This document shows, one piece after another, positions 1 through 21,336 of a stretch of 33,728 bases of DNA; position 1 is the first letter of the stretch, and every line of letters begins with the position of its first letter. Source of the stretch: Gracilaria domingensis (taxonomy: Eukaryota > Rhodophyta > Florideophyceae > Gracilariales > Gracilariaceae); NCBI GenBank assembly GCA_022539475.1, contig VCMS01000427.1, positions 1 to 33,728 on the forward strand, read 5' to 3'. The notes under the pieces are model-generated. The model searched no databases and had not been told where the DNA came from. It was given only the letters and a program-made list of their open reading frames with translations. The translations under genes were made by a program, and so were the position numbers.

Positions 1-758
1 TAGGTTTCGAAAGCTCTTGGAAGCTAAACCAGTCGACAGAGAGGTCGGGCTGAGCGCTCGCGCGTATCGTCTGGCGGAGGTTCGGAACCGAATGGTTTTC
101 CCGGTGTGGACCTCAGTTCCATCCTTATTGAGTGTTGAGCAGACTAGCTAATGCGGGACAGTCGAGACAGGAAGCGTCGAGATGCACTAACGTGGAAACT
201 ACGGAACAATCTTCGTACGCTCGACCTACGAGTTCCCCTTGGGGGTGAGTCCAACTTGGAAGAACTCAGATACCTGGTCGATGTCATTGACAGCGTGAAT
301 TGGGACACCATGCCTTTTAACCAGCGTGGCCGTGGCGAGCCTAGGGTCTTCGACCGTTCTCCAGGACGTAGAGTTACCGAGCAGGTGATTTCGTCTATTA
401 AGATCCCTACGAGGGCGTGTTATGTTCGCCTGCTCACGCTGCGGCCATTCGAGACGCACCGCGTATCATCCTTCATGGACACCCGAGAGGGTATGTCGAT
501 GCTGACGAGTTCGCACCGCCGGCCGACCTCGACGATCCAATGATGGACCACGACGCAGTGGGCGTTGACCAAGAGGGTGGAATGGGCCTTCCGGGTGCGG
601 ACTTTGGTGACAACCCAGCTATGGGCAATCCCGTGGTGGCTGACCCAGAAGCGGTTACCATCCGCCAGTTCCTGACCTCAATGGGTGTGAACATTCCCGG
701 GAACGTTTCAACGACGGAAGAGTTGCGCGCATTCGCGGCGCAGTACTTCCAATCATGA
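1..758 (+). pseudogene. aORF, element 1 copy (opposite-strand retrotransposon gene, 5' end outside window)
   Basis: This is the C-terminal half of the large gene that these elements carry on the strand opposite pol. It has no family I recognise. The region from about 150 to 370 reads LRTLDL, VDVIDSVNWD and RSPGRR, matching SLDLYTAL, IDSIDWS and RSPGRR in the element 3 copy. After about 375 the frame shifts. The matching block GDFVY-stop-DPYEG follows, with TAA where the other copies have a tyrosine or phenylalanine codon. The C-terminal motif, DP then RxxLxxMGVxIP, ends at the TGA at 756-758. The protein is shorter at the C-terminus than the other two copies. It runs toward the pol gene of the same element, with about 360 bases between it and the chromodomain stop. 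The copy is clearly non-functional. Confidence 0.7.
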
Positions 759-1116
759 GGAACTTCCTTTGTGGGATGCTCGGGAACGCTTGGCGTTGAC
801 AAACTACATGACCTGAATGATAGGTAAACGAAATAAACAAACCAACAACTAGTGGTAAACTTCTGGTAAGTCTTCTTTGCTTCCTTTCGTAGATCTTCTT
901 CTTCTTCTTCTTTCTTGAATCTTCATAATGACCATTATAGGTAAATCTTCATGACCATAATTGATAGACCATTCCATGGTAACTATCCTTCAACTTCATT
1001 GGCAAGTTCATCTTCTTCTTCTCTTCATAGAGCAACTACTTCATGTTCTTCTTCTTCTCATTCTCGAGCAACGAGAGTTCCCTTCGCGTGCTACGCGCGT
1101 CATCGCTACAGTAGCG
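759..1116. other. Convergent spacer of element 1, CTT-rich
   Basis: This spacer lies between the stop of aORF (plus) and the stop of the chromodomain frame (minus). It contains CTT/TCTTC tracts at about 896-915 and 1010-1065, which are GAA-rich in the pol sense. Element 2 has a spacer of nearly the same length and composition at the same place (12613-12978). No gene is seen in it. It could hold the polyadenylation signals of both converging transcripts. Confidence 0.55.
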
Positions 1117-1356
1117 TCACCCAGTTTGGGCTTCGCCGATGTTGGGCGGTAGTGGTGTACCGGTGCGTCGGTGATAGCGAACGAGGAAAGACCTAGGCAG
1201 GTTTCTCACAGGCTCATGGGTGTCTTTCGATGCCGGAAATCCATACCATCCCACGCGATAAAGCCACTCTCCATTTGGAGCTTGTTTATGATTCACAAGT
1301 TTCTCCACAATGTACTCACGTGGATACACCGCTTGGTCGGTCGATGAATTCACCAT
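1117..1356 (-). CDS. Small stand-alone chromodomain protein of element 1
   Basis: This short frame encodes about 79 residues from an ATG (MVN) at 1356. The frame is also open upstream to 1449, but the MVN start is shared with element 2, so I chose it. The chromodomain runs from YIVEKL to NLPRS: it contains YRVGWYGFP, the usual Y-x-V-x-W-x-G-Y/F-P signature, and the HEPVRNL segment that matches the WEPxxNL end of the fold, with histidine in place of tryptophan. Chromodomains of Ty3/gypsy chromoviruses bind modified histones and direct integration to heterochromatin. Normally the domain is fused to the integrase C-terminus. Here it is separated from the integrase tail by about 600 bases and a 22-bp repeat array, so it may be a separate protein or a spliced exon. 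This frame is intact. Confidence 0.75.
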   Translation of the reverse strand: MVNSSTDQAVYPREYIVEKLVNHKQAPNGEWLYRVGWYGFPASKDTHEPVRNLPRSFLVRYHRRTGTPLPPNIGEAQTG

Positions 1357-1449
1357 ACTGTCTCTTAACGGAGTTCCCAAGATGATGCGGGTATAAGAGT
1401 CCAGCCCTGACGGCGTATTGACTCCTTCAACAACCAGTAGTGGTTCCAC

Positions 1450-2066
1450 AATTAAGAATCGATGTATCGATTCAACTGTAGTGTTGTTCGGTAGTCACAA
1501 GCGCAGATTAACCAAACAAGGTATTTACTGAAAGAAGGAGACGAGCTGATCGTCACAAGCTAAATTCCATACGAATTGGACAGCGTAGTGCGAAGCTATC
1601 GCATCTAGAATACGAGTATTCCTGTCGATATCACGGGAGTTGACCGTTCTGACTGTGGAGCTCGGCGGCTACGCGCCGTTTTGCCTGCAAGTTCAAAGCA
1701 ATTCCATTGGTTGGAACACCACACACGTGGCGCTGTGAAACTGATTCCTATTGGTGTAACAACTGCCAAGTGGCCATGTGCACTTCCAAACATTCGTGTT
1801 GTACAATACCATCCAATTGGTCCGTCCATCTGCAACGTGGAAGTGTGCAAACCATTTTCATTTGTAGTGCACTCAATCTACATTGGACATGAATTCTGAC
1901 ACGTGGGTGTGTGCAAACAAATCCCATTGCTTGGGCAACACACCAAGTGTTTTTGTGCCACGCCGCTCATTGCGGTGGGCGACGGCGGCACCGTAATGCA
2001 TCAAAACATGCCAAAATTGGCAGATTTTCATTGCACAATGCGCCTCTTTCAAACGGACAAAACCGT
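1450..2066 (-). repeat. Degenerate 22-bp tandem array of element 1 (about 1690-2050) between integrase tail and chromodomain
   Basis: On the plus strand the DNA from about 1690 to 2050 divides into consecutive units of 21 to 23 bases. The clearest starts are near 1778, 1801, 1845, 1867 and 1911. Units begin GTGCAAAC or close to it, and carry near their end either an ATTGG core (CCATTGG, CTATTGG, CCAATTGG, ACATTGG) or an ACGTGG core (ACACGTGGCG, CAACGTGGAAG, ACACGTGGGTG). Because 22 is not a multiple of three, the repeat cannot be a protein repeat. Element 2 has a similar array at the same place. I saw no gene in 1450-1690 either. ATTGG is the complement of a CCAAT box and CACGTG is an E-box, so a regulatory role is possible but unproven. 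Confidence 0.6.
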
Positions 2067-5000
2067 TCAGTAAGGATCGGTTGAAAAACTTTTGTTAGGT
2101 ACTGTGATCTTCGCCCAAGCGGGAGAACAGGCCGTGAGCAATTCCTGACGCTGGAGCGTAGTAAGCGAGTGGGCACGTGCTCTGCGTCTGTGCTGAGTCT
2201 CCCATGAGGGTGTGATCCGTAGCATTATGCATGACCTGAACAAGGTAGACTTCGGTGAAGTCATCGAGGCAAGCGACAAGCCAGGGTCTGCGGAGATAGT
2301 CTTCGTAGTCCGCGAACGATTCCTAACGGAAGTAACCAATTGGTTCTGAGGATTTCCACGCTGTGGCAACTCATCGCCGCGAGGTGCGAAGCTCCGTATC
2401 GAGGACGAAACAACGTCATGCGTCTCTTCCCCCTTCTCAGTCTGAGATATCGATGCGGTAACAATCTCAGGTGGTGGGGTTACACGGGCGTGTGGGTATA
2501 CTGGATTCTCTATTAGAGTAGATGAAGAATTAGCCGACTCCCGCGGCAAATCAGTCAAGCTGCGATCCGGATGCGGAACTGTAGCGGGCCGTGACGGAGG
2601 AGTAGCTTCAGTCTCACTTGAACTACCCTGTGGAGGTACAGCGATAGCTTCCACAGTAGGATTGGGAGCAACAGTGACGCGATCGCGTGAGAGCCGTTCA
2701 TGAAGGCCATTGATATCCAGTACGACAGTGTCCGTTCCGGCGGAAACTACCTTATAAGGTCCCTCAGCAATAGGAGAGAGTTTCTGCTTTGGTTCCGTTT
2801 CAGGATTGTAATATTCCTAACGGACAAAAACAAGGTCGCCAGGATTAAGAACTGAGAGTAACGGCGTACGAATTCGCTTGTCGAAGTTAGCCTTGTTGGC
2901 AGCTTGTGCTTTAGACATAGCTTTCCGAGCGAACGGAACCATCTTTCCTAACCAATCTTTCCAGGTATCCCGATATAACCGGTGTGAAGGGAAGGTTCCC
3001 AACTTGGGTTGAGACTCGATAGCGACCGGAGGCGGTATCCTCGATAGTACGAGCTAAAATGGGGATAAATCGGTAACTCGATGGACCTGTGTGTTGTAAA
3101 CATACGTAATAGCGTCTGTGAATAAGTCCCAATTCTTAGGGTGATCTGATACATAGGACCTTAATGCGTTAAGCATCGTACGGTTGAACCGTTCAACTTG
3201 ACCGTTCCCTTGGGGATGATAAGTAGTGGTAAACAGATTGCTGACATCAAGAATACGACAGACGTCTCGGAAGAATTTCGAAGCGAATTGTCCCCCATTG
3301 TCGGATAGAACCTGAACAGGTGGGCCGTAAGCAAAAACCCAATGCTGGACGAACGCTTGCGCTATCTTCGTTGCAGTGATTGTCCTTAAAAGAACTGTAC
3401 GAATCAATTTGGGAAACCTGTCGGTAATAACCAAAAGAAAACGATGACCACGAGCGGTACGGAGTAGCGGTCCAAGAATATCAATCGCCACGAACTCTAG
3501 TGGAGCCCTTGCGGGAAAAAGCGTGAGATTCTTCGAGTATTTCCGGAGACGGACATTGTTCTTTGAGAATTCCGTGCAACCACGGCGAACTGCGTAGCAG
3601 TCTACCGCCATTGCGGGCTAATGGAAATCTCTGCGTAGAGTCAAATACAACTTCCTTCCACCAGGATGAGCACCCAGTTTCACATAATGTGACAGATGTA
3701 AAACGCTCTGCTGTAGAGTATGAGGTACCACAATCTGTGAATGTTCCTTATTAATGAAACGAACCAAATAAACTTGGTCATTCATAGCGAACGGGATCTG
3801 AAAACCTCCATTGAGGCGAGAGCGCATCTGCGTACAGAATGGATCGGACGACTGCTCTCTTATCATCTCCTCAGGAGAAATAGGCACACAGGAACACGAC
3901 GGGGGTTCCGTGGATTCGGTAACGAATAAATTGTCACACATGTCATCATCTATCGTCTTGATCAAACCATACTTGGTCATAACTATAAAACACGGTATCT
4001 CCAAGTCTTCCGTGGCGGATGTATAAGCGTTAGTCCCTAGACGAGAAAAGGCATCTGCTTGGCAGTTCAGAGAACCTTTCTTATAATGAACTTCGAAATC
4101 GAATTCCGCTAAACGGAGACGCCAGCGCATTAACCTGCCAGAGGGTTCCGATATTCTGAAGAGCCAACGGAGGGCCGAATGGTCGGTATGCACCACGAAG
4201 TGAGTACCCATTAAGTAGAATCGCAGTATGTTCAATGCCCAGATGACGGCTAAACATTCTTTCTCAGATACTGAGCAGTTCTTCTCATGAACATTCAGTG
4301 TCCTTGACGAGTAGCCATTCGGTCTACGGGTTCCGTCTTCCAAGGTTTGGAACAAAGCGCAAACAAATTGGTAGGCAATAGCGTCTGTGTCAACCGAATA
4401 TTGTAAACCAGGAGTTGGTAAAGCCAAAACTGGTGGTGACGTTACAGCGTCCACAAGGGACTGAAATGCGGAAGCTTCCGCTTCCCTGAAGGGTTCCAGC
4501 TCAACTGGCCTGCCCTTCTTCAAAAGCTCGTTAAGGGGAGCCGAGATTTCGGCAAAATTCGGAACGAATCTACGATACACGTTACAAAGTTCAAGAAAAG
4601 AACGGAGTTCCGTTTGGTTCGTCGGGTGCTTTGCTTCCTTCAAGGATTTCACACGAATTTCGTCAATCGAAAGCTTTCCGGGACGGATCGTATGTCCAAA
4701 ATACTGAACCGAATCGGTGAAAAACTCGCACTTCTTTAACTTCAGAGTTATTCCGGCATCGCGGAGAACACGCATGATTTCTCGCACATGAGACAAATGA
4801 TCGTCTATGTTGTTGGAAAAGATGATGATGTCATCAAGGTATACCAAAACAGGTCTTCCCCTTGTATGGAGCCAGTAGAATATCTAATGCTCTTTGGAAC
4901 GTAGCGGGCGCATTTGTGAGCCCAAAGGGCATTCGTTTGAAACGATACAAGCCTTGATGGCACTCGAAACCGGTTTTGTCACGGTCTTCCTTGCGGATAG

Positions 5001-6546
5001 GAACTTGCCAATATCCCCAATTCGCGTCGAGCGCCGTGAAAATCTGAGCACTCCCGAGTGAGTCAATGCATTCGTCCATTCGTGGAATCGGGTAGACGTC
5101 CTTAACTGTATCCGAATTGAGGCGACGGTAATCAATACAGAATCGCCACGATCCTTCCTTCTTAGGAGCTAGTACTACTGGTGATGCCCACGGGGATTGG
5201 GCCAGTATGATGTCTCCAGCCTTAAGCATCTTCTCAACTTGAGCTTCTTCTTCTTCCCTAGCCTTAGGGCCAGCCCTATAAGGGTGTTGCGCTTTCGGCC
5301 GAGTGTTCGGAAGGAGATCAATTCTGTGCTCGGTAATCGAGATCTTTCCTAGGGAACCATCCAACATCGGGGTAAACTCCCTCAACTTATCACGTAGTTT
5401 CTCACGGTGAGTGTCTGGTACATGTTCCAGATTCACTTCTTCCAATTCCTTAACAGGATCCTTCTGTTCTTGTCCCAGGGGACTAGCCTTTTCCTCAGAC
5501 TCTTATGGTTGGTTCGGCGTACCGACATCCGAAACGGTTGCAATTATCTCCTCTTCCCCCTTCTCAGGGTGTTGTACGCCGAGTACGTCCGCGAGGGTAA
5601 CCTTTGTAGGTATTACAGCGGCCGGATGCGGCATTACTGAACCAATAACCTGCTGTTTAGTTAACCATTGAGGTTGAGGCCCCAAATTGGCTATGAAAAG
5701 CTTAAAAGGCTTCTGAGGTTCAATATGAACAACTCCATTAGCGAGAGCAAGAAGACAAGAATCATATAATGATTGTATCGGTTGCACGACACGTAAACCA
5801 GGTTGGTCCGAGCTCACAGTGACCCAGGTTTGGGATTCGGCCGGAATCAAAATTGAACGGGCGCACCGTAAACGAGTAGAACTTCTATCCATGTTCGGAT
5901 TATCCTGTGCGGCAGGGAGAGGAACTTGACGCTTGAAAGCTTGCCGGAGCGGCTTCCGAACAATCGGTATGGTTGAACCATCTTTCATTTCCACACATTT
6001 GAAACGCGGGTGAATCGCTTCGACGAACCTGTCGTAAAAGTCGCAGCCCAGAATAACGGGAGCAGCTAGTGATTCGCATACGAGAAATTCTAATTGGACT
6101 GTACATTGGCCGAGCCGAACCATCAGGTCAATGAAGCCTTCCGTCCGTAACGGATTGTTGTTTGCATCGGCAATATGCAGCGATGGACCTTTACGAATCA
6201 ACGGCCGTAACGAGGCAGGCAACAACGATTTAACCAAAAGTTTAGGACCACCTCCAGTATCTAGAACAGATAACTGTCGAACCATAAACTGTTTAGACAA
6301 GCCAAGGTCAGCGTAAACCTTGTAGTTACGCTTGGCCTTGACCATAACCTGATCCGGGATACGGCGATTTCTATACCGCACCCACGGTCGACGCAGAACA
6401 CCAAAGTGTCTCGAGTTCACGTCGGATTCAGCCGATTTCCTAGTAAGGATCTTGACTGGGAAGCGAGGCGATGACGCCTCGGGCGCCACACTCCTCGACT
6501 CTGTGGGCGTCCCTCCGTTCGGGGAGACTCCCAAAATTAGTTTTTC
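2067..6546 (-). pseudogene. pol: pol of element 1: protease, reverse transcriptase, RNase H and integrase (Ty3/gypsy type)
   Basis: Domains come in the gypsy order. The protease has the catalytic LDTGG at about 6264-6250 and an ILGCDF block. The reverse transcriptase has LDANWGYWQ and VYLDD (about 4845). RNase H keeps its acidic residues in SVDTDA, SEKECLAV and HTDHSALRW. The integrase has the HHCC region, a D-59-D-35-E core at about 3482, 3302 and 3194, and a GPY module (EGPYKVV). The order RT-RNase H-integrase and the GPY module place it with Ty3/gypsy chromoviruses. The copy is dead. A TAA interrupts the frame at 5505-5503. An extra T at about 4845, just before VYLDD, shifts it. TAG codons lie at 3620-3618 (Trp in element 2), 3056-3054 (Glu) and 2819-2817 (Arg). 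The second zinc-binding cysteine reads CTEF instead of CTEC. A Ser/Pro/Thr-rich tail follows the GPY module to about 2067. Confidence 0.93.
6537..6546 (-). promoter_or_regulatory. Candidate -1 frameshift site at the gag-pol junction
   Basis: The last codons of gag are TCG AAA AAC TAA, and pol is open in the -1 frame through this point. The heptamer G-AAA-AAC directly before the stop resembles the A-AAA-AAC slippery site used by retroviral gag-pro junctions, but its first base is G. A gag stop beside an overlapping pol frame is normal for this class. No second gag-pol junction of the family is in the window, so the site cannot be confirmed by comparison. Confidence 0.35.
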
Positions 6547-8560
6547 GAAGGCGAATCCACCGAAGCGGTTTTGCCTCCGTCTGAGGACTGAACGACCTCA
6601 GAGGTTTGAGCTCTTAAAGATACCGGCACCGGGTTGGAGACCGATGCAACGATGTTTGGCAAGAACAGCGAACGGAACTGTTGGTAGGACAAATTCGGAA
6701 CGCGCGCACGTTCTTCTTCCCTAAGGGACTCATAAGCTTCTATAATCTTCGACATATCTTTCAGATTGAACTGACAGTGAGTCGAAACATGACCACGATG
6801 GTAGCAAACATGGCAGATAAGCGTTGACCTATAGAAGCATGGACGGGTATCCGTACGGTTTTCTATCCGATGTTGCGGAGTAGTGTTATCCCGCCAACCG
6901 GGTCTACTGAAACGTGTGCTGTTGTTGGCATATGGGACCTTCGGTGGTACAACCTGTGTTCCCACGTACAGAGCCGGGTCTTCCTCAGAGGAAATTGAGG
7001 TTGGCGGAAACTCCGTACTAAGCAAGGACTGTCTGCTCTGGCTTTGAGCCAAATGAACATTTTCCACACCTGGATTTTCCTTAGAACGGTAGACTAACGA
7101 CAGTGATGGTGAGTTCTCCGCATGGAATATCGTAGAAGACCGATGTTTCGAGTGTTGGCGAGAATGCAAAGCATCTCTCTCTGCCTGGGAGAACTGAACC
7201 AGTTCCAGGTAGGTTGCCTTCCTGTCGGATTCCCGATACTCGGACACAAGTGTCCTGATGGCAGGATCTAAACCATCGCAAAACAAAGCGCATCGCTCAT
7301 GGTGAGAATACACATTTCCACAACGATGAAAAGCCTTATTGAGGCGAGTCGAATAAAGCGTTTCCGTTTATGCGGATTTCTGTTTTGTATCGCGTAAAGC
7401 CAAGATGGCAGACTGAATCGCAGTACCAGTGGCATATGAACTCAGAAGATATTGAACAGCTTCCGGCCAATAAGTTACACCTTCCTCCGAGGCACGGAAA
7501 ACTCCCATGACGGAGCGAAACTGATCTTCGGCCATTCCTTTAACGAAATACGGTAGTGGCACGAAAGCCTGGGCTTCACTCATCATGAGTATGTCGGCTT
7601 CCGATACGAAACGGGCGATGAAGTCCAGTACAAAAATTGGGTCTTCACAACTGAAAGCGTGATCCTTCATCGTGAGGTCCATCCTCTTGATATAGTCCTT
7701 CACACGACCTGTCCCACGGGGAGTACGATCAAGTGATGAATCGTCTAAGAGATAATGTCGATACGATAACAGTTTCCGAAACAGGATGTTAGAGGGCTTC
7801 AACTCTTTGAGTCCAATGTGCTTCCTACCCTTCTCGTGGGTCATGATGGTGCCGTGCGCAGCATAGGTAACCTTGAACCGTGTCGGTCGCTCGCGGTGGT
7901 CACGATATCCATCATTGGACGAGTCAGACGACGAAGTAGTAGAACTGTCCGAGTCGGAGTCAGGACGAACCAAACGGTCTTCATACGTAGTCGGTCGGTC
8001 CTTTCCGAACTTCTTTGAAGAATGACGGATTGAAACCCGAGGGCGGGCATCTTCCCTTGCTTGGGCAGCAATGAACTCTTCATCTGCCCGGAAAGTAGCC
8101 TCGAGCGTATCGATGCGACTGTGAGCTCGCTCCATCATACTCTGGAGAGTCTCGAAACGAGTTTCGATGTTCGATACGAATATGTTCGGGGCACCGAAAC
8201 CTTCCAATATGGAATTAATATCCTTACGCATGGTGCGTAGTTCTGCACTAACATCCCTAACTTGGGCTTCCTCGACACGAGCCCGGAGATCTTGAATATC
8301 CTGCAGATGATCGGTATTCGATATACGGAGAACCTGCAGGTGGGTCTTCAACTCTTCAACCTCGTGTACGAGAGAACCCAATTGGGTAGATATCACATCC
8401 AACCCACCAGCCTGGGTAGCCGGGACATCCGGGGTGTGTTTCACTGTTTCACTTGGGCCGATGTAGGCTTTTCCTGCGTAGGATTCCGCGACACCTGCTT
8501 CGACGCGCGGGCGGCGGAACGGTTCGAACCTTCACGAGATCCCTCTGAAGGGCGAGCCAT
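6537..8560 (-). pseudogene. gag: gag of element 1
   Basis: This is the nucleocapsid-type structural gene in front of pol. The probable start is the ATG at 8560-8558 (MARPSEG), about 180 bases after the 5' LTR. An exact 8-bp tandem duplication at 8437-8452 shifts the frame, and without it the N-terminal part joins the rest. Next comes a heptad-rich, probably coiled-coil region (about 8400-8080) and an acidic/serine tract (DSDSDSSTTSSSDSS). A central Gag-like helical region includes YFVKGMAED and GVTYWPEAVQ. A TAA at 7370-7368 interrupts it. The second half carries a CCHC zinc knuckle, C-x2-C-x4-H-x4-C, at about 6815-6774, the usual RNA-binding motif of Gag. The gene ends with TAA at 6539-6537, where pol is open in the -1 frame. 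Confidence 0.85.
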
Positions 8561-8742
8561 ATCAACCAGACGTGGTCAGACTGATTAATTCAGTACAAGC
8601 AACAAACCAAGGCCAAACAATGGCAACAAAAGCAACAAAGATATCCAAACTGGACAACAAGAAACCAATCGAAAACTATCAACAACAATTAACACCAATT
8701 GAGGTTAACCCGTTCTTAAGCTTCTAGGTCGGGAGACTAATT
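8561..8742 (-). other. Leader between 5' LTR and gag of element 1 (primer-binding region)
   Basis: Reading in the sense direction, the LTR ends in CCACA and is followed by AATTAGTCTCCCGACCTAG and about 160 bases of T-rich leader before the gag ATG. A usual primer-binding site would begin with TGG at or within a few bases of the LTR. None is seen, so the primer may be an internal tRNA segment or the site has decayed. No gene is seen here. Confidence 0.45.
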
Positions 8743-9636
8743 TGTGGAGCAATCCCAGAAAGGGAAAAGCCACCGAGGCAGTTCGAATCCCCGCTCTCAA
8801 GAGAGGTTCGCACAGCGACAGCGCACCCCGTTTCCTCCGGTGTGGGTGTAAATCCACGAGGACTTCAGGCTATACCACAGCGTTGAGAAAGAACGCCCGA
8901 ACGGGAAAAAGGCCAGGAAAGGCGGATACAGTAGTGTAGATCGTAGCTGACCAATGACGGTATCTGTAGCCAAATGTAGACATCCAAAGGTGGAACAACG
9001 ATATAGAAATAGGCGGTAATGAACCAAACCAATGATAAAAACGAAAGAAAGAACAGAAACAAACCCAAGCACTGGGGCGGAGAGAAAGTACCGGTCGGTA
9101 AACAGATATGTGTGCACTCCACGAGTCACAAGAAAAACAAAAGAAAAACAAGACCAATGATGGTATGCCCTGCGTGCACTCTCCTGGTTGGAGCCGGGGG
9201 ATAACTAGACCGTGCTGCGGTAACTCGCTCCGCGAGGAGTTGGAGTTCTCGCGCAGGCGAAATAGTTAGAGCCGCACACCGGGTTACATTTACTAGGTTG
9301 GTGATGGCGGTGAGCCACCACCTAAGTAGTAGAATTAGCGGCCCTGTAGAGGGTTATCAAAAATATCTAAATAATAGATTAATCTAAGCACCTCATGTGC
9401 ACCTCCTGTCCCGCGCAGTCCTGACAGTTGCGGACCAAAACCCACCGGGTATTTCTAAAAATTATGAAAAGATTCACTCCTTCCAAACAACCAAATAGTG
9501 GTACACATGTACACATTCCGGGTCCGGATCCACGTAATCGTGCCACTCATAACCTCGAGTTCCCCATCGATGGGCGTCTCCATAAGTTATGATGGCCACT
9601 ACCGAAACGGCATCCCTGAGGAGGGTTTGCTCTACA
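8743..9636 (-). repeat. 5' LTR of element 1 (894 bp)
   Basis: On the plus strand it begins TGTGGAGCAATCCC and ends GTTTGCTCTACA, so it has TG...CA ends with inverted tips (TGTAGAGCAAA against TTGCTCCACA in the sense orientation). It is homologous to the LTRs of elements 2 and 3, most clearly at 9205-9325, where constant loops GCAG and AGAGCCG occur between variable stems. The gag leader abuts it on the left. On the right the sequence changes at once to the integrase frame of element 2, so this edge is an insertion boundary. The other LTR of element 1 lies beyond the left end, so the target-site duplication cannot be checked. Confidence 0.8.
9205..9325 (+). repeat. Structured LTR block, element 1
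   Basis: Within the LTR, short stems follow one another: ACCG/CGGT (9209-9221), a long-range GGTAAC/GTTAC pairing (9219-9287), TCGC-GCAG-GCGA (9249-9260) and a large hairpin GGTGATGGC/GCCACCACC (9300-9322, one mismatch). The same set is found at 18991-19103 and, on the minus strand, at 15439-15327, with different stem bases but the same loops. Confidence 0.5.
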
Positions 9637-10837
9637 CATTACTTCAGAAGAGTTAGTCCGTGAACAACAAGTGGATGCCTTCTGTACGCAGATTCGTGGT
9701 CGACTCAACGCAGGATTTAAGATACCCTTTTCGATTAACGGCAGGGGAGTTTTTGTCAGGATGGTTGAATCTAACCAACAAATTGTGGTTCTCGACTCTT
9801 TACAACAACGGGTGCTGCATCTCTCACACTATGTCAAAGTAGGCGCACAACCTGGGAGCAGGAAAGTCTATTTGATTCTCCGAAGATATTTCTATTGGCC
9901 AGCGATGGCTTTCGACTGCTACGCAGTTCGCTGTTCGTGTACGGAATGCGCGCAAAACAACTTCAGACTCCGACGGTATTCTAAGAAGTTGTCGCTGTTT
10001 CCAGCTCGCGCTCCCTTGGAGTTCATGGCTATCGATATCCTTGGTGAATTGATCAAGACTGCTCGCGGTAACCGGTTTCTCCTGTTTATCACGGACAGGT
10101 TGTTTCAAAGCTGGTACGGATAGTTCCGTTAAAGCCTATCACCGCTCGCGTGGTCACGGAGGCGTTTGTCACGCATTGGGTCTTTTCATTCATCTGTTAT
10201 CAGATAATAGACCGCAATTCACGCAGTTCTTTCAGTACGTGTGGAGAATCTTGGATATAAAGAACTTGTTGACGTCAACTTATCATCCCCAGAGTAATTG
10301 GCAAGTTGAAATTTTTAATCAAACAGTGCTGAACGCATTACGATACTATGTTGCGGATCACCCCAAGAACTGGGACCTATACAGGGACTCGATTACTTAC
10401 GCGTACAACACCCAGGTTTATCGGGCTACCTCGATATCACCATTCGAGTTGGTTTTACCCAGAAGACTGCCGCCGGTTGCAATAGAAGCTGAACCGACAC
10501 TGTCAACGTACCCGTCGCCGGTAAGTACAAGGATGCCTGGAAATCTTGATTAACGAAGATGGTACCTGTTGCCGAGAGGGCCACGAATAAGGCGCAGCTT
10601 GCCTACAAGCGTAACGTCGATAAGCGAATTCGACGTCCCCTACCTATAATTCGTAAAGATGACTACGTGTTCTTACGCAGAGAACACTATAATCCTGAAA
10701 AAGAACGGCGTCATAGGCTGTCCCCGATTACGGACGGTCCTTATCGAGTTGTCGAAGTCGCTTCTGACACTGTCGTCCTCGAAATTGACAATCAACACGA
10801 ACGTATTTCTCGTGAAATGCGTTACGCTCGCGCCTAA
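9637..10837 (+). pseudogene. pol: pol of element 2: integrase part, truncated by insertion of element 1
   Basis: The frame starts abruptly at the LTR edge as ITSEELVREQ, matching ISPEEMIREQ of element 1, so the upstream pol was separated by the insertion of element 1. The HHCC zinc region is complete here (H in LHLSHY, H in AQPG replaced by Q, then CSCTEC). The integrase core keeps D in AIDILG, D in LLSDN and E in QVE. However, GG became RP after the second D, and one residue is missing (D-34-E). Frame shifts lie near 10110, 10185 and 10520. A TGA at 10547-10549 stands where element 1 has TGG. The GPY module (DGPYRVVEV) is intact, and the frame ends at 10837. The protein cannot be active. This copy is more decayed than element 1. 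Confidence 0.9.
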
Positions 10838-11446: not shown

Positions 11447-12378
11447 TAACATGGATACCATGGAAGGTGCATACCAGTTGGTCACTTGGTACTTCACCGT
11501 CACAAGGTGATCCACGACGTGGAGAGACCGTTTGCACGGTGCGCTCATCTGCCTGTCACTTCAGGTGCAGTGCCGCAATCTCGCGAAGGAGGGCAGTCGC
11601 ATGCGCTGCGCGCGAGCACTGCTATTCTGTGGAATCTCCTTATTGAGAATTGGATTACATATTTATCCGTGAAGGGCCGAATCCGGCGCTGTGGGCATTG
11701 CCGAATTTCGAAAAAACTCAAATTTTCGTGTTGCCAACCGCTCACGGTGTCCTCTCGTGGCACTCGTACCCCCTGCAACAGCGCGCGCAATTTAATTGCC
11801 TGATTTTTTGGCTTGCCACGGCGCGTGGACTCCGGTGCAAACAGATGGCATGGCGCATGGACACTTGGCACCTTTGCAGACCCAAGCAGGAACGCTTGCA
11901 CAAGAACACGTGGCAACATGCATGGCCAATGAGATCACGTTGCACTCCGTGCAACCGGTCAACCGGTGTGACAATGCAACTGCCCACGTGGCGACCGCCG
12001 CACCAATGGCGTTGAAGTTCACAATCTTCGTGGCCCGGTGAACCTCCGGCAAGGATAGAAAGAGCCTGAAGACGGTAATCACCGAGAACGGTCAGCCTCG
12101 TGAATACGAATATATCGTGTATCGTTGTTGACACCGTTTATCGGTTTGTTCGTTGATGTTCATGAACGGATACCCGTTGAACTCAGAAAGCTGAGGAGTA
12201 TTAATTGCACTTCGATATTCGAAAACTGGGTGTATCCAGGTGGGGCTCTAGTACTGCTGTCACATCGCGCGCTCGCGAAGCTCGCGCGAATGAAATTGGC
12301 AAAAGCCGTTGCCGTAGCCTCCACCAGAAGAGTCTTGTAGCAAACCTCGTAAGGTGTTCTCATCGTCTGAGTATCTCA
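11447..12378 (+). repeat. Pre-chromodomain region of element 2 with degenerate 22-bp array (about 11830-12010)
   Basis: The tetramer TGCA occurs at 11875, 11897, 11919 and 11941, exactly 22 bases apart. The surrounding units carry CACTTGG, CACGTGG (twice) and CCAATG cores. This is the counterpart of the array at 1690-2050 in element 1. The sequences have diverged, but the period, the cores and the position between integrase tail and chromodomain agree. No gene is seen in 11447-11830 or 12010-12378. Confidence 0.55.
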
Positions 12379-12612
12379 ATGGTTAATCCAGAAACGGATG
12401 TCTACCGGCAGAGGTATGTCGTCCACCAAATTATGCGGCATGTTGCAGGTCCCGATGGGAGGTTCCGTTATCAAATCCGTTGGTATGGATACCCTCGTGA
12501 AGAACATACGTACGAACATATTGGAAATTTACCTCGTTCAAAGGTAATAGCTTATCACTGGCGTTCGCGTACAGCTCTTCCTCCATATCTGGATTGCGCC
12601 CAGGTGGGATAA
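12379..12612 (+). CDS. Small stand-alone chromodomain protein of element 2
   Basis: The frame encodes about 77 residues from an ATG (MVNPETD) to the TGA at 12610-12612. It contains YVVHQIMRH, then FRYQIRWYGYP and YEHIGNLPRS, the chromodomain pattern, with tyrosine and histidine at the usual WEP position. It aligns over its whole length with the element 1 chromodomain, including the MVN start and the LPP near the C-terminus. The frame is open upstream to about 12205 without a better start. Like its counterpart it is intact, while the surrounding pol is broken. Its expected role is to guide integration to chromatin marks. Confidence 0.7.
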   Translation: MVNPETDVYRQRYVVHQIMRHVAGPDGRFRYQIRWYGYPREEHTYEHIGNLPRSKVIAYHWRSRTALPPYLDCAQVG

Positions 12613-12978: not shown

Positions 12979-14962
12979 TTATATTCCCGCCGCTGGAGCA
13001 CCTCCCGGATTGGTGGGGCCACCCTGGTTCAGGGAAAGCGAAGGGTAGCTCTGCGCAGCTAACGCCAGCATCTGGCCGATATCCGTCATCACCGGTGGAA
13101 TCGGGACCCCCATCTGGGTGAGCTGGTTTCGCAACGCAGCAGCCTGCGGATCAACCGCCCCAGTCTGCGTGATGTTCCAACCAGGTGGAGCGCTACACCC
13201 GCTTGCTCCCGTCGTTGGGATAACCTGCATGCTACTCACCGGCGTCGGTTGCACCCCCTCTCCAGGGTTCACTGGTTCGATAACCGCCATCGGATCGTCC
13301 TCCCTGTCTCGGTCATAGTAACTGTCGGAAAACATGAACCTGATCCGGTGATCACTCGTCACGACACTAGGCACTTGCTTCAAGGCACGAGGTTCCGCGA
13401 AGTCGGTCACGGTCCTCTCCCAAGGGTTGAAGTATACGAAGTCTCCAGCCCCTGGATATCCTCTACCTGGCGACTTATCGAAGCGCGTACGCTGACCCGC
13501 TGAAACGTTCTCGGGCGTTACTCTGCTCCAATCGATATCATCGATGACGTCGAGAAGGTACAGAAATTCATCCACGTTGGTGGAGGAACAGAGAGCGGTG
13601 CGTAAATCCACTTGTCGAACGAGCTGCCTCAACTTCGGGGGAAGGTATCAAATACCGCACTGGTCGTAGACTTCCCAGAGGGTGAACGCGGCATCGCGGG
13701 CAGCTCATTCGCACATCATCAGAGCCCAGTACCCGGATTTCGGATTTGAAATCATTCGGAACCCAATGTAGGCAATGCAGGGAGGACACTCCGCGAAACA
13801 ACCGCGTGGAACCTCAAGGTTGCTCCACGACGGAGGAAATGGGACGTAGCGACCCGGTAGTGCGTCATGTCGCAGACGATCCACTTCGGAATTCGTGTAA
13901 GGTACGAAGAACCCGGACCGGGATCGCCACTTCCTTTCACTTCAGACAGGGTCGCTGAAGGTCCCCTCGCCAGAAGGGCGTCGCATAAAGCGAAACTCTG
14001 CTAGCAGAATGGATCGGTTGAAGAGCAACCTATCGGGATCCATCGGAGCATTCCGGATAATCTTCGTCGGATCGAACCCAGCGAGATTCGCTCCATAGGA
14101 GATTTCACGGTACGTTCGGTATCGGGAGAGATCGAACCCGTACTGGGGCGGTACCACTTCTGGTGGATTGTGAGCACGGTTCATTCGGAAGTACGAAAGA
14201 CGCGCCATACCTGCGCGAGCTTCGTCCAGCATCTCGTACTACCTGCCGGTTCTTTTCCTGTCAAGGAGGTGTGGTGTGCCCCCGCAATGCGGGTTCTCCA
14301 CTCCCCGGAGGTCACCATATCTCGTTAAAAACCGCCTGGAAATGTGCCGTCTTCCGTGAAGGAATCGATGGTGTCTTCATCCTTCACCGGTTGAGGGTGG
14401 AACCAGGGAGCTCTGGAAATGTGCCGTCTTCCGTGAAGGAATCGATGATTTCTTCATCCTTCACCAGTTGAGGGTGGAACCAGGGAGCTCTGGAATACGC
14501 CCAACCGCCGTCTAGTCGCGGATCTCGAACGAGAAGCGATTCGCGTGTGATCCATCCCGATGTGTGCGCCGTAACCGGCATAGCTCTAGAGAAGTTCGAA
14601 GCCGATACCGCGGCAACGTTCATAGCTGAAGCGACGGGCTGCTGACTCCCCTGTGGCGGCAGGGCTGTGGCGAAACCGCCGAAGTATCCTGCTCCTGTGG
14701 AAGACGTTCCGGCACCGGAGGGAGCACCAGACTGGCTGGGACCCCCTGAGGAAAGGAAAGCGCTGTCGTTAGAATTCGGATTCATCAAAAAAGCGACTTC
14801 TCGCGTGGCTTGGTGGTTCGGAATGTTGAACTTCGCTGCAGGCGTGTGTTCACTTGAGAGTGTATCGCTGTTGAGCTTTGGTTTTCTTGGTATCGGGATG
14901 TCGGAGTCACTAATGCTTGAGCTTATATGTTCTCGCAAACGAGGTGGTAATGTCGCCCACAC
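12979..14962 (-). pseudogene. aORF of element 2 (opposite-strand retrotransposon gene)
   Basis: This copy covers almost the whole gene. The N-terminus is Ser/Pro-rich and includes SDSDIPIP, matching MDISEIPVP in element 3. Then come GYFGGFA, GWITRESLLV, WAYSRAPWFHP, YGFDLSRYRTY, EVPRGCF, IDDIDWS, SPGRGYPGAGDFVYF, FMFSDSYY and a C-terminal MGVPIPP motif. A 77-bp tandem duplication (14337-14490) shifts the frame once. After it a single frame continues to the end with three TGA codons at 13944-13942, 13707-13705 and 13650-13648. The element 3 copy has CGA, TGG and TGG at those places. No clear ATG remains at the expected start near 14895. The protein matches no family I know. Low-complexity Ala/Pro/Gly tails and lack of catalytic motifs suggest a structural or nucleic-acid-binding role, which is only a guess. 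Confidence 0.75.
14337..14490. repeat. 77-bp tandem duplication inside element 2 aORF
   Basis: Two nearly identical 77-base copies, 14337-14413 and 14414-14490, differ at only a few positions. They cover the WAYSRAPWFHP coding segment. 77 is not a multiple of three, so the duplication breaks the reading frame. Confidence 0.9.
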
Positions 14963-14977
14963 GGTATTGCTCGATGT

Positions 14978-14989
14978 AAGGAGGGGGAT
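14978..14989 (+). promoter_or_regulatory. Polypurine tract of element 2
   Basis: AAGGAGGGGGAT stands directly before the LTR start TGTACAGCAA on the plus strand, the pol sense. The same tract lies beside the LTR of element 3 on the minus strand. In LTR retrotransposons this tract primes plus-strand DNA synthesis, so it fixes the sense direction of the element as that of pol and marks this LTR as the 3' one. Confidence 0.75.
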
Positions 14990-14990
14990 G

Positions 14991-15980
14991 TGTACAGCAA
15001 TCGCGATTTCGCGTTTGTGACGTATTCCGTTTCAGAACACCTCGGCTCTTCCAGGTGCCTCTACCGCAAGGTTATGAATTTGGGTGGCATTTTGACACCA
15101 TATTGCATGGTGGCACCCGATGGGTTTGATGGATTGGTAACTGGTTGTGGCAGTGGATCGCGTGTACGCGTGTATAGATTGGCTCTGTTACAGAGAAAAC
15201 TAGATTGGTTTTTAGAATTAGTGGCCGCCAAGGCGGGTCTACACAAGTGCAACAAGTGTGTGGCTCTGCCTTATTTGGCACTACGTATTTTAATTATTTA
15301 GTTTAATTTTGTGGAAACCTACTTAGGTGATGGCGACCTCGCCTTCACCATCACAAAGTAAATTCAAACTTGTCCGCGGCTCTGACCTGAACGCCTGCGC
15401 GTAGTGCACAACTTTGCGAAGAGGGTCACCGCGTACGGTTTTGCTTCTTTCATCCCCAGGGGATCACTCAGGTACCCTGATCTATCACTTCGTTTGTCTT
15501 CGGACTGTGTTCGCACGTTTACTTGCAGGTGTCCGCTACTCTGGTGTTCAGATATTGTATCGACTCCGTATAGAGGTCGGCCGCATGGGCTCAATACACA
15601 TCGTCACCCTCGGCCCGTGCCTGTTGCCGCTCGTCGCACGACCCCGCCCTCGGGTTTGTCCCTTTTCCTTTTCTCTCCTTTCCCCTTTTTCCCATCCTTT
15701 TTCCTATCTTTTTCCTATCTTTTTCTCCTTTTTCGAGGCACCCCGTCGACCTGAGTTTCTTCCCTTCCGCCTCCGATCAGAGATATACGACTCTCGAGCG
15801 CTTGCTTACAAATCCTTTCTTGTCGATTTCCGCCCTCACCTCCGTGGTATTTCCTAAGTACGGGCGGTTTTACTCCCACTTTGTCCATTACGGAGGCCTC
15901 TTCTGCTCAGTCTACCTCCCAAGGAAGCAAGGACTCGAGCAACTTGTGTGTCATTTCTCCCAAGCGGGATTTGCACTACA
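14991..15980 (+). repeat. 3' LTR of element 2 (990 bp)
   Basis: It begins TGTACAGCAATCGC after the polypurine tract and ends GATTTGCACTACA. It is homologous, reversed, to 18471-19450: the shared segment around GTGTATTGAGCCCATGCGG (minus strand) matches GTGTATTAAGCCCACGCGG in element 3. The structured block lies at 15327-15439. A pyrimidine-rich tract (TTTTCCTATC repeats) occupies about 15655-15735. The long frames on either strand here are low-complexity shadows. The element ends here. The flank starts CAACC, and the matching flank is not in the window. Confidence 0.8.
15327..15439 (-). repeat. Structured LTR block, element 2
   Basis: It has the same order of stems as in elements 1 and 3, read on the minus strand: ACCG-TACG-CGGT (15439-15428), ACGC-GCAG-GCGT (15402-15391), the constant AGAGCCG, and a terminal hairpin with GTGAT/ATCAC and GGCGA/TCGCC stems (15327-15354). 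The middle stem has different bases from the other copies but still pairs around the same GCAG loop. Confidence 0.5.
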
Positions 15981-17759: not shown

Positions 17760-18424
17760 CTAGAAGTTTAGAAGAGCCGCCGTGTCAGTTCTGAAGTGTA
17801 GGGCTATCTCTCTCATGTACGTATGTTGCAATTGTTCCGGGGATGTGTTCATTTGGAACGCTATCTTCTTGAGCAAATCTGCTTCATTTACATTCTCGAA
17901 AATGTGGCTTCGATGATACTTTTCGTGTATCATGGAGACGTAACTTTGCCAAAAATCGATCTTCGTCACACAGCAAAGGTTTTCATTGTGCGAACTCATA
18001 AATTTCCGGAGTGCTGTTGTAATTTGTGGAGGTGTCAGCATTTTTGCGGTGCTTGTGTGAATCAAGAGTGGCTTCAATGGCCTACACTCAGCACTACCGA
18101 ACCTCTTCATTATCGCTGGACGAAAATTTTCGATGTGAAACCTCAACTATAGTATCACTGCTGTCGCAGGTAAAATCAGATTCGGCAGATCCAGATGTCG
18201 TGGAGCTTCTCATCTAACGTTCGCAGCTCGATGTTTGAGACTGAATTGCTGCAACAGAAGTACTGCTCGTACTCAAATTTGCTCGGTAGTTGAAGCTGAC
18301 TCAATACTTGGGGTCTTTGACCTCCAGAAGCGAGCCCAAGCAGAGCAATAATGTTCACAGACCAGTTCGCTTCATATGAGTATACTACCGACGCGGGATC
18401 GCTCATGGTTTCTCTTTTGGCCAA
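17760..18424 (-). pseudogene. Possible tyrosine-recombinase C-terminal domain relic
   Basis: Two adjacent minus-strand frames (18424-18176 and 18146-17760) together resemble the catalytic half of a eukaryotic tyrosine recombinase. SGGQRPQVL could be the box I arginine region. VTKIDFWQSYVSMIHEKY followed by EQLQHTYMRE could be the box II region and the tyrosine. At the position where the family has a catalytic arginine (DFR-x-SY) the sequence reads DFWQSY, a change possible by one C-to-T step from CGG to TGG. A frame break lies between the two parts. An in-frame TGA lies just upstream of 18424, and the LTR of element 3 starts 46 bases further on. Element 3 may therefore have inserted into this gene. 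The assignment rests on motif shape only. Confidence 0.35.
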
Positions 18425-18470
18425 TCGAAGTTGTCAGGCAGCCCGCATTTTCTTGATCTGTCTGAGAAGA

Positions 18471-19450
18471 TGTAGAGCAAAACCCCAGCGATGGGATCGT
18501 CTTTCAAGGCGTTCGAGTCTTTGCCCTCTAGACGAGGTGAACTCAGTGGTGAGCCCTCCGAACACGGATAGTGCGGGTGTAAGACCGCCCGTGGTACGGG
18601 ATATACCTACGGAGGTTGATGGGTGAACGGGCCTGATCCAGGAATCCGGCGAAAAGCGACGGAATGGTTCAGAAGGGAGGTACCGTAGAGCGATGTGAGC
18701 TCTAGGTAAAAGAGGGAAAAGGAAGGGAAACCACAGGAGGAAAAGAGAGGAATCCCGCGGCGGGACGTGTGGCAAGCGGCAACAGACCCGGCGCAGGGAG
18801 ACGACGATGTGTATTAAGCCCACGCGGCACAACTCTATACAGAGACGGAAACGCTACCAATTGTGGTGAAAGCAGTACAACTGCACAGTAAAAAAACAGA
18901 AAGTCCGAAGACACGGAATAAATAAGCCCGAAGGCAAAGCCAAAATGGTCAGTATTGCCTGAGTGATCCCGAGGGATGAATCCAATCCGTACCGTACGCG
19001 GTGACCCTCCTGAAGGAGTTGTACACTTCGCGCAGGCGAACTTGGTTCAGAGCCGAACTCGGTTACCCTTTACTGAAGGAGGAGGTGACCGGGAGGTCAC
19101 CTCTTATATCGTAACCGATAAATTAGTTAAACTAAATTCAATAATCTAGTGCACACCTATGCAGGTCCATACACGTGGTGCACGTGACAACCCGCGGCAG
19201 CGGCCAGTAAAATATCCGACAATCATAAGAAGACATGTGTGAACACACCCATTCCTACACACGCGTACACGCGACCAATACTCATCTGCGCCACGTCATG
19301 GCCGACCCCTCAGGGTGTCATACCTCAATACTGCCAAAAGGTATCCCATCCGTGGGCCAATACTCATACCTTCCTAGTACCCGGAATCATCCTTACCAGG
19401 AGTTTATGAAATCCTTCCCTGTGTACCGGGCGAGCACGTTTTGCTCTACA
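18471..19450 (-). repeat. 3' LTR of element 3 (980 bp)
   Basis: On the plus strand it runs from TGTAGAGCAAAACC to GGGCGAGCACGTTTTGCTCTACA-type ends, with perfect inverted tips TGTAGAGCAAAAC/GTTTTGCTCTACA. A polypurine tract abuts its right edge on the minus strand, so this is the 3' LTR of an element whose pol would run on the minus strand from the right. The structured block is at 18991-19103. The left flank reads GAGAAGA. The promoter for aORF probably lies in this LTR, because the aORF start is 80 bases inside it. Confidence 0.82.
18991..19103 (+). repeat. Structured LTR block, element 3
   Basis: Stems: ACCG-TACG-CGGT (18991-19002), GGTGACC with GGTTACC (19000-19006 and 19061-19067), CTCC-TGAA-GGAG (19007-19018), TTCGC-GCAG-GCGAA (19027-19040), GTTC-AGAGCC-GAAC (about 19044-19057) and a perfect terminal hairpin GAGGTGACC-GGGA-GGTCACCTC (19082-19103). 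This copy has the cleanest pairing of the three. Confidence 0.5.
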
Positions 19451-19452
19451 TA

Positions 19453-19463
19453 TCCCCCTCCTT
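19453..19463 (-). promoter_or_regulatory. Polypurine tract of element 3
   Basis: On the minus strand AAGGAGGGGGA lies two bases before the LTR edge, the same tract as at 14978-14989. It shows that the sense strand of this element is minus, opposite to aORF. Confidence 0.7.
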
Positions 19464-19530
19464 AGCGTAGGAAACATCCGGTTTGCAAGCAGAGACTCAT
19501 CAGCGAGCGAGTATGTAAGCGCGGTCTACC

Positions 19531-21336
19531 ATGGACATATCGGAGATTCCGGTTCCTCGTCACAACGAGACACACGCGCAAGCGCACTCAACTTCTCTGC
19601 ACTCAGACGATTCAGTACCTGAAGTTTCCTCCGCGATCGACGATTCGATGAACCCTCACCAGGGCGACGAGCAGCACTCTCAAGCCAGGGCTCCGAACGT
19701 TTCGGGTCCCGCAACTCCTGCGACAGGATATCTCGGCGGTTTCGCGTCCACTCCTCTGCCTCGGAGTCAACATCACATGACTACACCGAACCCGGTCGAC
19801 GTCGCGGCGTGGAATTCCGCTCAGGCGGTGCCCTTGCTGGCGACTCCGGCTGGCTGGATAGCGCGTGAATCGCTCCTTGTTCAAGATCCGACTACCGGAG
19901 GAAGCTGGGCCTATTCCAGAGCGCCCTGGTTTCACCCGACATCGGTTCGCAACAGTGCGTTGATGGATTCATACACCGAGAACGGTATGCTGCCTGGCGG
20001 CCTACACAGAGATATGGTGGAGTCCTGGGATTGGAGACACCGCGTGGCGGTCGCACCTCACGTGTTGTCACGGAAACGGCGCGGCCGTGGTTACGAAACG
20101 CTAGATGATGCGCGAGCGGCTATGGCGCGATAGGCATACTTTCGGAAGGACCGAGCCTCATTCCCCGAGAGGATTCCCGAGTCATACGGGTTCGACCTTT
20201 CCCGTTTCCGAACTTACGGAGAGATCAAGTATGGCGCGAACCTCGCGGACTTCCAAGCGGCGGAAAACTTTCCGGAAGCGATGCCGGTGGACATTCTCCT
20301 GTTCAACAGGCCTATCCTGCGAGCGGAGTTCCGATATGTACATCGCCCTTCGGGAGAGGGAAGCTTCTTCGACCGACTGCGAAACGAACGCAAATGGTGA
20401 TCCCGGCTCAGGTATCTGATTCCACACCAGAACATGGAGGTTGAACGTTTGCGTCCGGACGCACTAGCGGGTCGATTCGCTCCACTCCCATCGTGGTGGG
20501 CTCACTATGAGGTACCACGCGGGTGTTTCCCGGAATTGCCTCCGTGCATCTCCTATGTGGGGTCACGCATGATTGCGAATCCGTACTCGGAGTATTGGAT
20601 GCTCTTCATCGCCAAATGGGCCGCTCGTGTTGCCGCGTTTATGCTATGAGAAGCATACGACCAGAACTGTGTTTGGTATTTGCCTCCGCGGTTACGGAAT
20701 GTGATTAGATCACTGGACTTATACACCGCGCTCGGTTCGGACGACAACGTCAGCAAGGTCATCAGCCTTATCGATTCCATTGATTGGAGTACCGTTCCGG
20801 CGGAAAACGTCCCCAGGGGCACTCGTTCTCACTACAACCGTTCGCCAGGGCGAAGACATCCGGGTGCCGGTGACTTCGTGTATTACGATCCGTGGGAGGA
20901 AGTTACCGTCCCGAAGGACCGGGCTCTTGTCCTACGCGGACGTCCTCGAGTGGTTCCGAGCGATCACCCTATTGGGTTCATGTTTTCCGACAACTATTAC
21001 TCCGTAGCAGAGGAGGACGATCCAATGGTGGATGACACTGTGAAAGACCCGGCAACGGGAGGCCCGTCGGCGGCTTCCGCAGGAATTCCGGTTGTCGGAG
21101 GGGCGGCTGCCCCAGTTGCTCCTATCGGTTGGGATGTCGGCCCTTCGCAGGGGAATATTGACCCTCGCGTGATAGCGATGCGCAACCAACTCCTTGGACT
21201 TGGGGTGCCGGTTCCACCGGATATGTACGATCTCGGCCAGCTGTTGGCATTGGGCGCGCAGGCTTTCGCGACTCAGCCTCCCCAAGCAGGGCCGTCCAAT
21301 CATGGAGGTGCCGGTCCTTCGACAGGATGGCAGTGA
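19531..21336 (+). pseudogene. aORF of element 3 (best preserved copy, about 602 codons)
   Basis: From the ATG at 19531 (context ACCATGG) to the TGA at 21334-21336 the gene stays in one frame, with only three internal stops: TAG 20131-20133, TGA 20398-20400 and TGA 20647-20649. Element 2 has non-stop codons there (CTT, CGA, TGG). The order of features is: Ser/Pro/His-rich N-terminus (about 1-65), GYLGGFAS, GWIARESLLVQDP, WAYSRAPWFHP, YGFDLSRFRTYGEI, RPSGEGSFFD, EVPRGCFPELPPC, LRNVIRSLDLYTAL, IDSIDWSTV, SPGRRHPGAGDFVYYDPW, GFMFSDNYY and an Ala/Gly/Pro-rich C-terminus with RNQLLGLGVPVPP. No signal peptide, membrane segment or zinc motif is seen. I do not recognise the family. Loss of frame by substitutions only, without indels, suggests fairly recent death of this copy. 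Confidence 0.8.

What the first reader, a model, noticed from the sequence alone, without database searches (positions are those of the whole stretch)
1..21336. A roughly 600-codon gene runs head-on against pol in a Ty3/gypsy chromodomain element family
In three independent copies (1-758, 14962-12979, 19531-21336) an unrecognised gene starts just inside the 3' LTR and runs toward pol on the opposite strand. Where both are present the two genes end about 360 bases apart. Polypurine tracts at 14978 and 19463 prove that pol is the sense strand. The copies differ strongly at DNA level yet share motifs in the same order (WAYSRAPWFHP, IDWS, SPGR-GAGDFVY, FMFSDxYY, MGVxIPP), which points to past selection on the protein. 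Antisense extra frames are known in some plant Tat-lineage elements such as Grande and RIRE2. I know of none of this size and sequence in a chromodomain element.
Basis: partly seen in the sequence, partly recalled or inferred. Interest (0 to 1): 0.88.

Follow-up and report, generated by a model that had tools for sequence, protein, structure and literature searches.

The report
Antisense accessory gene in seaweed retrotransposons
A large family of jumping genes in what is probably a red seaweed carries an extra protein gene of about 600 codons on the opposite strand, kept by selection and unlike any protein or fold we could find, so it is probably a new kind of helper gene whose job is not yet known.

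Summary
The three window copies are broken: a fragment, a frameshifted copy, and one with three in-frame stops. The host genome holds the gene in at least three abundant subfamilies, with stop-free frames of about 604 (A), 617 (B) and 599 (C) codons. In capped lists of near-full-length copies, 51 of 71 (B) and 52 of 73 (C) have no stop. Of the 71 B copies, 65 lie head-on to a B-type pol tail (gap 1,300-1,330 bp in 56 of 65); none lies on pol's strand. The start codon is about 80 bp inside the 3' LTR in the copy measured. Between subfamilies dN/dS is about 0.13-0.28 (synonymous sites largely saturated); in 12 pairs the other five frames carry 10-37 stops. Relatives occur in Gracilariopsis chorda and unnamed public records. 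No Pfam, PHROGs, NCBIfam or PDB sequence match; two AlphaFold models give a confident, mainly helical core with no Foldseek match. It works like the antisense 3' ORFs of plant Grande/RIRE2/Retand elements but lacks Retand's TRP28 domain and sits in a chromodomain element. Most likely it is a trans-acting accessory protein made from an antisense promoter near the 3' LTR; transcription and function could not be tested.

The parts
148..758 (+). aORF copy 1: C-terminal fragment, spread over two frames (148-543 and 402-758)
   Evidence: shares motifs SPGR and MGVNIPG with the family (read by eye)
1117..1494 (-). chromodomain frame of element 1, ends 358 bp from the end of aORF copy 1
   Evidence: Pfam PF00385 E 3.4e-5, 24.1 bits, just under the cut-off of 25.1
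3054..3617 (-). integrase part of pol, element 1
   Evidence: 80% identical over 187 codons to L048 pol
3618..4883 (-). RT end, RNase H and H2C2 zinc-binding part of pol, element 1
   Evidence: PF00078, PF17917, PF17919; PF17921 weak, below its cut-off
4834..5502 (-). first part of RT, element 1
   Evidence: read from the sequence: frame with WRFCIDYRRLN; not scanned against Pfam
6537..8531 (-). gag-like frames of element 1 with a CCHC-like knuckle (CHVCYHRGHVSTHC)
   Evidence: no confident Pfam match, label from sequence
9620..10553 (+). integrase remnants of pol, element 2
   Evidence: 66% DNA identity to element 1 over 985 columns
12205..12612 (+). chromodomain frame of element 2, ends 366 bp from the end of aORF copy 2
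   Evidence: PF00385 E 8.3e-6, 26.1 bits
12979..14962 (-). aORF copy 2, frameshifted, with a 77-bp tandem duplication at 14336-14495
14978..14988 (+). polypurine tract of element 2, followed by the 3' LTR start (TGTGTACAGC)
19453..19463 (-). polypurine tract of element 3 (sense strand is minus)
19531..21336 (+). aORF copy 3, 602 codons with 3 in-frame stops; subfamily A
   Evidence: closest relative in the genome G000:C173, 97-98% identical over the two pieces searched

Best explanation
A Ty3/gypsy-type LTR retrotransposon family with a chromodomain carries a conserved accessory gene of about 600 codons between the chromodomain frame and the 3' LTR, on the antisense strand. Shown: position, strand, stop-free copies, purifying selection between subfamilies, and a confidently predicted mostly helical core of about 380 residues between disordered tails. 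Inferred: it is transcribed by RNA polymerase II from an antisense promoter in or beside the 3' LTR (a TATA-like word lies just past the polypurine tract in several copies), ends shortly before the pol unit that converges on it, and makes a soluble protein that acts in trans on the element's own life cycle. The most likely role is regulation of its expression or escape from host silencing, as proposed for plant antisense ORFs. The specific biochemical role is a guess.
For: Stop-free near-full-length copies: 51 of 71 (B) and 52 of 73 (C) listed. Fixed head-on geometry: 65 of 71 B copies, gap 1,300-1,330 bp in 56 of the 65, none on the same strand. dN/dS between subfamilies 0.13-0.28. In 12 chosen pairs only the aORF frame is free of stops, and in the divergent pairs codon position 3 varies most. 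Kept in a recent insertion: C396 copy with 974-bp LTRs 100% identical and a stop-free aORF. Conserved in a family whose 15 aligned members are 28-45% identical to the first, with 16 invariant columns counting the initial Met. Core slower than the tails. Two models with confident cores.
Against: No transcript, protein or phenotype data exist here. The TATA-like word was found by pattern in 7 of 15 sequences looked at. It lies only 10-18 bp before the first ATG in A and B, closer than the usual spacing (recalled, about 30 bp), and in C it lies just after the first ATG of the frame. dN/dS within subfamilies is 0.44-0.59, so many single copies drift. 70 of 150 RT places had no aORF listed within 8 kb and 3 had one only on their 5' side; the lists are capped, so this is unresolved. 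pN/pS of the aORF core is 0.45-0.53 in the four divergent pairs measured and 0.23 in the closest, against 0.085-0.12 for RT, so constraint is clearly weaker than on RT. The conserved helix reaches a 19-residue hydropathy mean above 1.6 in 2 of 17 proteins (P0004 1.86, P0011 1.63), so 'soluble' is not certain. Regulation is inferred by analogy only.
Confidence: 0.72

Rival explanations
1. It is a structural or particle protein (second capsid-like or envelope-like protein) expressed from the antisense strand rather than a regulator.
For: About 600 aa, disordered ends around a helical core; evolves faster than RT, as surface proteins can. In 2 of 17 proteins the conserved helix exceeds a hydropathy mean of 1.6 (P0004, P0011), and P0015 has an N-terminal stretch of 2.15.
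Against: In the three closest proteins (P0001, P0013, P0014) the best 19-residue means are 1.33-1.54, on the conserved helix or in a low-complexity tail; no signal-peptide or membrane predictor was run.
Confidence: 0.12
2. The antisense RNA, not the protein, is what matters: it controls the sense RNA (double-stranded RNA or interference), and the open frame is incidental.
For: Convergent layout would give overlapping RNAs if termination is leaky; antisense RNA control of Ty1 is cited in a passage of PMC4007536.
Against: Selection is on amino acids: dN/dS 0.13-0.28 and stop-free only in this frame in the 12 pairs tested.
Confidence: 0.06
3. The gene is a separate nested mobile element or captured host gene that hitch-hikes in one lineage.
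For: No match to other retroelement proteins; two Gracilariopsis chorda proteins are annotated as ordinary hypothetical proteins, whose surroundings I could not see.
Against: Same head-on position in subfamilies whose aORF cores share about half their residues. No family recognised in curated libraries. A host-gene origin far in the past is not excluded.
Confidence: 0.07
4. Host-level selection keeps intact aORFs (domestication), since some subfamily A copies have broken pol but an open aORF.
For: L047: pol split by stops while the 608-codon frame is open.
Against: If A copies have drifted by 2.5-5%, 18% down to 3% would have no stop by chance (substitutions only, indels left out); within A dN/dS is 0.59. 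This looks like neutral decay.
Confidence: 0.03

Closest known systems
Antisense additional ORFs between pol and 3' LTR (aORF-3R) of plant elements: maize Grande (GENE23), rice RIRE2, Silene Retand (PMC7264820: passages and section 5; PMC11963269: passages)
   Same: Place, strand, presence in most copies, conservation, unknown function; an own promoter is reported for Grande.
   Different: 97% of recently active Retand clusters encode the TRP28 domain (PF04195) and Retand is a non-chromovirus lineage of flowering plants; here there is no TRP28, a chromodomain is present, and the host is probably a red alga. The Grande and RIRE2 proteins were not compared directly.
Boty of Botrytis cinerea (named in PMC7264820 section 5)
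   Same: Non-plant element with an antisense ORF before the 3' LTR.
   Different: Its protein could not be compared here; no sequence was on hand.
PvRetro13 of common bean (PMC7264820 passages)
   Same: Antisense ORF between pol and 3' LTR.
   Different: Reported to carry a conserved SMC domain; no SMC match among the Pfam hits of 14 family members.
Retroviral antisense genes such as HTLV-1 HBZ
   Same: Antisense strand, promoter in the 3' LTR (HTLV antisense promoter in passages of PMC7264820; the name HBZ and its bZIP domain are recalled).
   Different: No bZIP among the four weak, scattered Pfam hits of 14 members. The present gene does not overlap the sense frames seen.
Chromodomain Gypsy elements of Ectocarpus (PMC12477816 passages)
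   Same: Algal Gypsy elements with a chromodomain; there reported as not related to true chromoviruses.
   Different: In Ectocarpus the chromodomain is fused to integrase; no antisense gene is mentioned in the passages seen.

Membership tests
Ty3/gypsy LTR retrotransposon | pol order RT - RNase H - integrase | tested here: met
   L048 pol: RVT_1, RT_RNaseH, Integrase_H2C2, rve in order
Ty3/gypsy LTR retrotransposon | paired LTRs and polypurine tract before the 3' LTR | tested here: met
   C396 LTRs 974 bp, 100% identical; polypurine tracts
Ty3/gypsy LTR retrotransposon | primer binding site and target-site duplication | not tested
   not examined
Chromovirus clade | chromodomain at the integrase end | tested here: inconclusive
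   PF00385 found (E 6.9e-10 in L050), but in a short frame of its own after the pol stop
Chromovirus clade | RT phylogeny inside chromoviruses | not tested
   no reference RT set was gathered; PMC12477816 passages show algal chromodomain Gypsy elements can fall outside
[quoted passage not shown]
   65 of 71 listed B copies head-on to pol; 3' LTR position measured in one copy (C396) and by polypurine tract in others
Plant aORF-3R (Tat/Retand type) | TRP28 domain PF04195 | tested here: not met
   no PF04195 among hits of 14 family members at E <= 1; none in the whole genome at E <= 1
Plant aORF-3R (Tat/Retand type) | own antisense promoter and transcript | not testable with these tools
   no RNA data; TATA-like word only
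Envelope-like accessory ORF | sense orientation with gag-pol | tested here: not met
   antisense in 65 of 65 B copies with pol listed
Envelope-like accessory ORF | transmembrane segment | tested here: inconclusive
   hydropathy maxima 1.33-1.54 in P0001, P0013, P0014, but above 1.6 in P0004, P0011 and P0015 of 17 proteins; no dedicated predictor run
Retroviral antisense factor (HBZ type) | bZIP domain (recalled) | tested here: not met
   no bZIP among Pfam hits of 14 members at E <= 1

The most novel reading that the evidence does not exclude
The gene founds a new protein family with a previously unseen fold, restricted to red-algal (and related aquatic) Gypsy elements, that arose independently of the plant antisense ORFs. 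Convergent evolution would then have twice put a trans-acting factor head-on against pol beside the 3' LTR, pointing to a general advantage of running an accessory gene from the antisense side of the LTR, for instance to be made from silenced or newly integrated copies before sense expression.
Probability: 0.35. Interest if true: 0.8.

Novelty: new variant of a known kind. Interest (0 to 1): 0.62.

Why it matters
Antisense accessory ORFs of LTR elements have been described mainly in plants, with unknown function and, in Retand, one recurring domain. This is a different protein in the same place in a different lineage, with near-identical stop-free copies, at least one recent insertion, and a confident predicted core without structural match. 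It offers a comparison to ask why elements place a gene there, and a candidate new protein fold. It also cautions that such genes may be listed as host hypothetical proteins in algal annotations.

Tried and rejected
Pfam, PHROGs, NCBIfam and PDB sequence searches gave nothing usable. Foldseek on two models against PDB, and on the first also against viral predictions, and a second look by VIA-align gave no match. IMG/VR and prokaryote contigs gave no confirmed relative. An alignment query to the protein database lost most of its own members to the candidate cap and added only 3 proteins; a search with the divergent P0012 found only itself. So the absence of relatives in other groups is weak evidence. 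Domestication of subfamily A copies was considered and dropped. A random sample of 20 of the 88 RT places without an aORF in the lists of that time was drawn but could not be fetched; instead the aORF and pol lists were deepened, which brought the number without an aORF to 70 of 150. RT and aORF trees were not compared: RT protein identities between subfamilies (82-91%) differ too little.
Full report
What is in the window. Element 1 runs on the minus strand: gag-like frames (8531-6537), RT/RNase H/integrase (about 5500-3054) and a chromodomain frame (1494-1117), with the aORF fragment ending at 758 on the plus strand. Element 2 runs on the plus strand: integrase remnants, a chromodomain frame ending at 12612, the aORF on the minus strand (14962-12979), and the polypurine tract and LTR start at 14978-14989. 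Element 3 shows only the polypurine tract (19463-19453, minus) and the aORF (19531-21336, plus). All three aORFs are broken: copy 3 has three in-frame stops over 602 codons, copy 2 is frameshifted with a 77-bp duplication, copy 1 is a fragment.

How common and how intact it is. The window is contig C427 of a 77.9-Mb assembly in 680 contigs. Pieces of the aORF match at least 150 places each (lists capped). Three abundant subfamilies were sampled: A (the window's copy 3; 604 codons from the first ATG), B (617 codons) and C (599 codons); further divergent copies (L065, L066, L067) lie between or outside them. Of 71 listed near-full-length B places 51 have no stop, and of 73 listed C places 52 have none (tally; 71 of 1341 and 73 of 1351 first-look candidates were scored). 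At the local base compositions a random 610-codon frame would be open with probability 6.5e-9 to 8.0e-12.

Position. Of the 150 best RT places, 77 have a listed aORF on the opposite strand 4.4-5.9 kb 3' of RT, none has one 3' on the same strand, 3 have an aORF within 8 kb only on the 5' side, and 70 have none listed. For the 71 B copies a search with the tail of B-type pol (134 rows) finds 65 head-on and none on the same strand within 6 kb; the gap is 1,300-1,330 bp in 56 of the 65. One of the six misses (C542) ends at a contig end (contig length); the other five were not looked into. In the C396 copy the LTRs are 974 bp and 100% identical, the chromodomain frame ends 370 bp from the aORF end, and the aORF ATG lies 80 bp from the LTR. 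This copy is a recent insertion; its aORF is open, although its pol is split over several frames. L048 has an aORF of 617 codons and a pol frame of 1,043 codons covering RT to integrase; the contig ends shortly beyond, so the rest of that element cannot be judged.

Selection. Pairwise Nei-Gojobori estimates on 41 sequences (pairs under 300 shared codons dropped): within A 0.59, within B 0.44, within C 0.49. Between A and L066 dN is 0.20, dS 1.55, ratio 0.13; A-B 0.27, A-C 0.20, B-C 0.18. dS is near or at saturation in most of these, and pairs with unmeasurable dS (for example 51 of 96 A-C and 234 of 240 B-C) were left out of the ratios. For 12 chosen pairs the other five frames hold 10-37 stops. 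Their pN/pS lies near or above 1 in the divergent pairs, except the reverse frame that shares third positions (0.40-0.68); in very young pairs (for example L014-L033 and L048-L064) the frames do not separate clearly. As a yardstick, RT (161 codons) is 82-87% identical between A, B and C with pN/pS 0.085-0.12 (pS saturated). The aORF core is 47-55% identical with pN/pS 0.45-0.53 in four divergent pairs, and 76% and 0.23 in the closer pair A-L066. The gene is under purifying selection but evolves much faster than RT. Subfamily A copies are decaying: L047 has a broken pol and an open aORF, which chance allows.

Host. The nearest named relatives of the protein are in Gracilariopsis chorda, a vanadium haloperoxidase-like gene lies in the window (that such genes are common in red algae is recalled), and the assembly size is close to the 78 Mb given for Gracilaria domingensis in a passage of PMC10388701. 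A Gracilaria-type red alga is therefore an inference.

Promoter side. Just past the polypurine tract, in the antisense direction, a TATA-like word occurs by pattern in 7 of 15 sequences: two A, two B, two C and window copy 2. It was not found by the pattern in D (L095), window copy 3, L062, L065, L066, L067, L068 and L070, though L070 shows TATAAATA to the eye and the printed piece of L066 ends inside such a word. In A and B it lies 10-18 bp before the first ATG; in C it lies a few bases after the first ATG of the frame. In A, B and window copy 2 a conserved Met-Asn-Pro lies about 130-140 bp beyond the word. Which Met starts the protein, and whether the word is a promoter at all, is open.

Most likely working. 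The element makes its gag-pol RNA from the 5' LTR (textbook knowledge) and, I infer, a second RNA from an antisense promoter at the 3' LTR. The two genes converge with about 0.37 kb between the chromodomain frame and the aORF. The product is probably soluble, has a helical core rich in invariant charged residues, and probably acts in trans on the element's expression or on host silencing. The geometry is shown; transcription and role are inference.

Comparison with what is known. The nearest kind is the antisense ORF between pol and 3' LTR of plant Grande, RIRE2 and Retand elements (PMC7264820: passages and section 5; PMC11963269: passages). The layout is the same. Membership in the Retand type fails on TRP28 and on the chromodomain, since Retand is a non-chromovirus lineage. 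It works like them but is not shown to be one of them. My nine completed paper searches showed no report of it; the library holds open-licence papers only.

Noticed in passing
window 28245-29883 (+): Vanadium haloperoxidase-like host gene in two frames: DUF6851 (PF21167) and VCPO second helical-bundle domain (PF22778).
   Followed up: partly
window 26829-27205: Tandem array of about 110-bp units, each holding a palindrome around GTGTTAGGGTAGCTACCCTAACAC.
   Followed up: no
G000 contig C144, 60656-90076: Three RT matches 11,590 bp apart with aORF matches at about the same spacing: a head-to-tail array of the element. The aORF of the one unit read (L095) is broken into several frames.
   Followed up: partly
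window 1117-1494, 12205-12612; L050 3168-3521: The chromodomain is in a short frame of its own after the pol stop, not fused in one open frame; a splice, a frameshift or a second ORF would be needed.
   Followed up: no
L015, L048, L072, window 14880-15000: TATA-like word close to the polypurine tract and the start of the aORF in 7 of 15 sequences, and a conserved later Met-Asn-Pro that could be the real start.
   Followed up: partly
window 15377-15706 and 18703-19055: The 3' LTR regions of elements 2 and 3 face each other and are about 73-76% alike over two short stretches.
   Followed up: no
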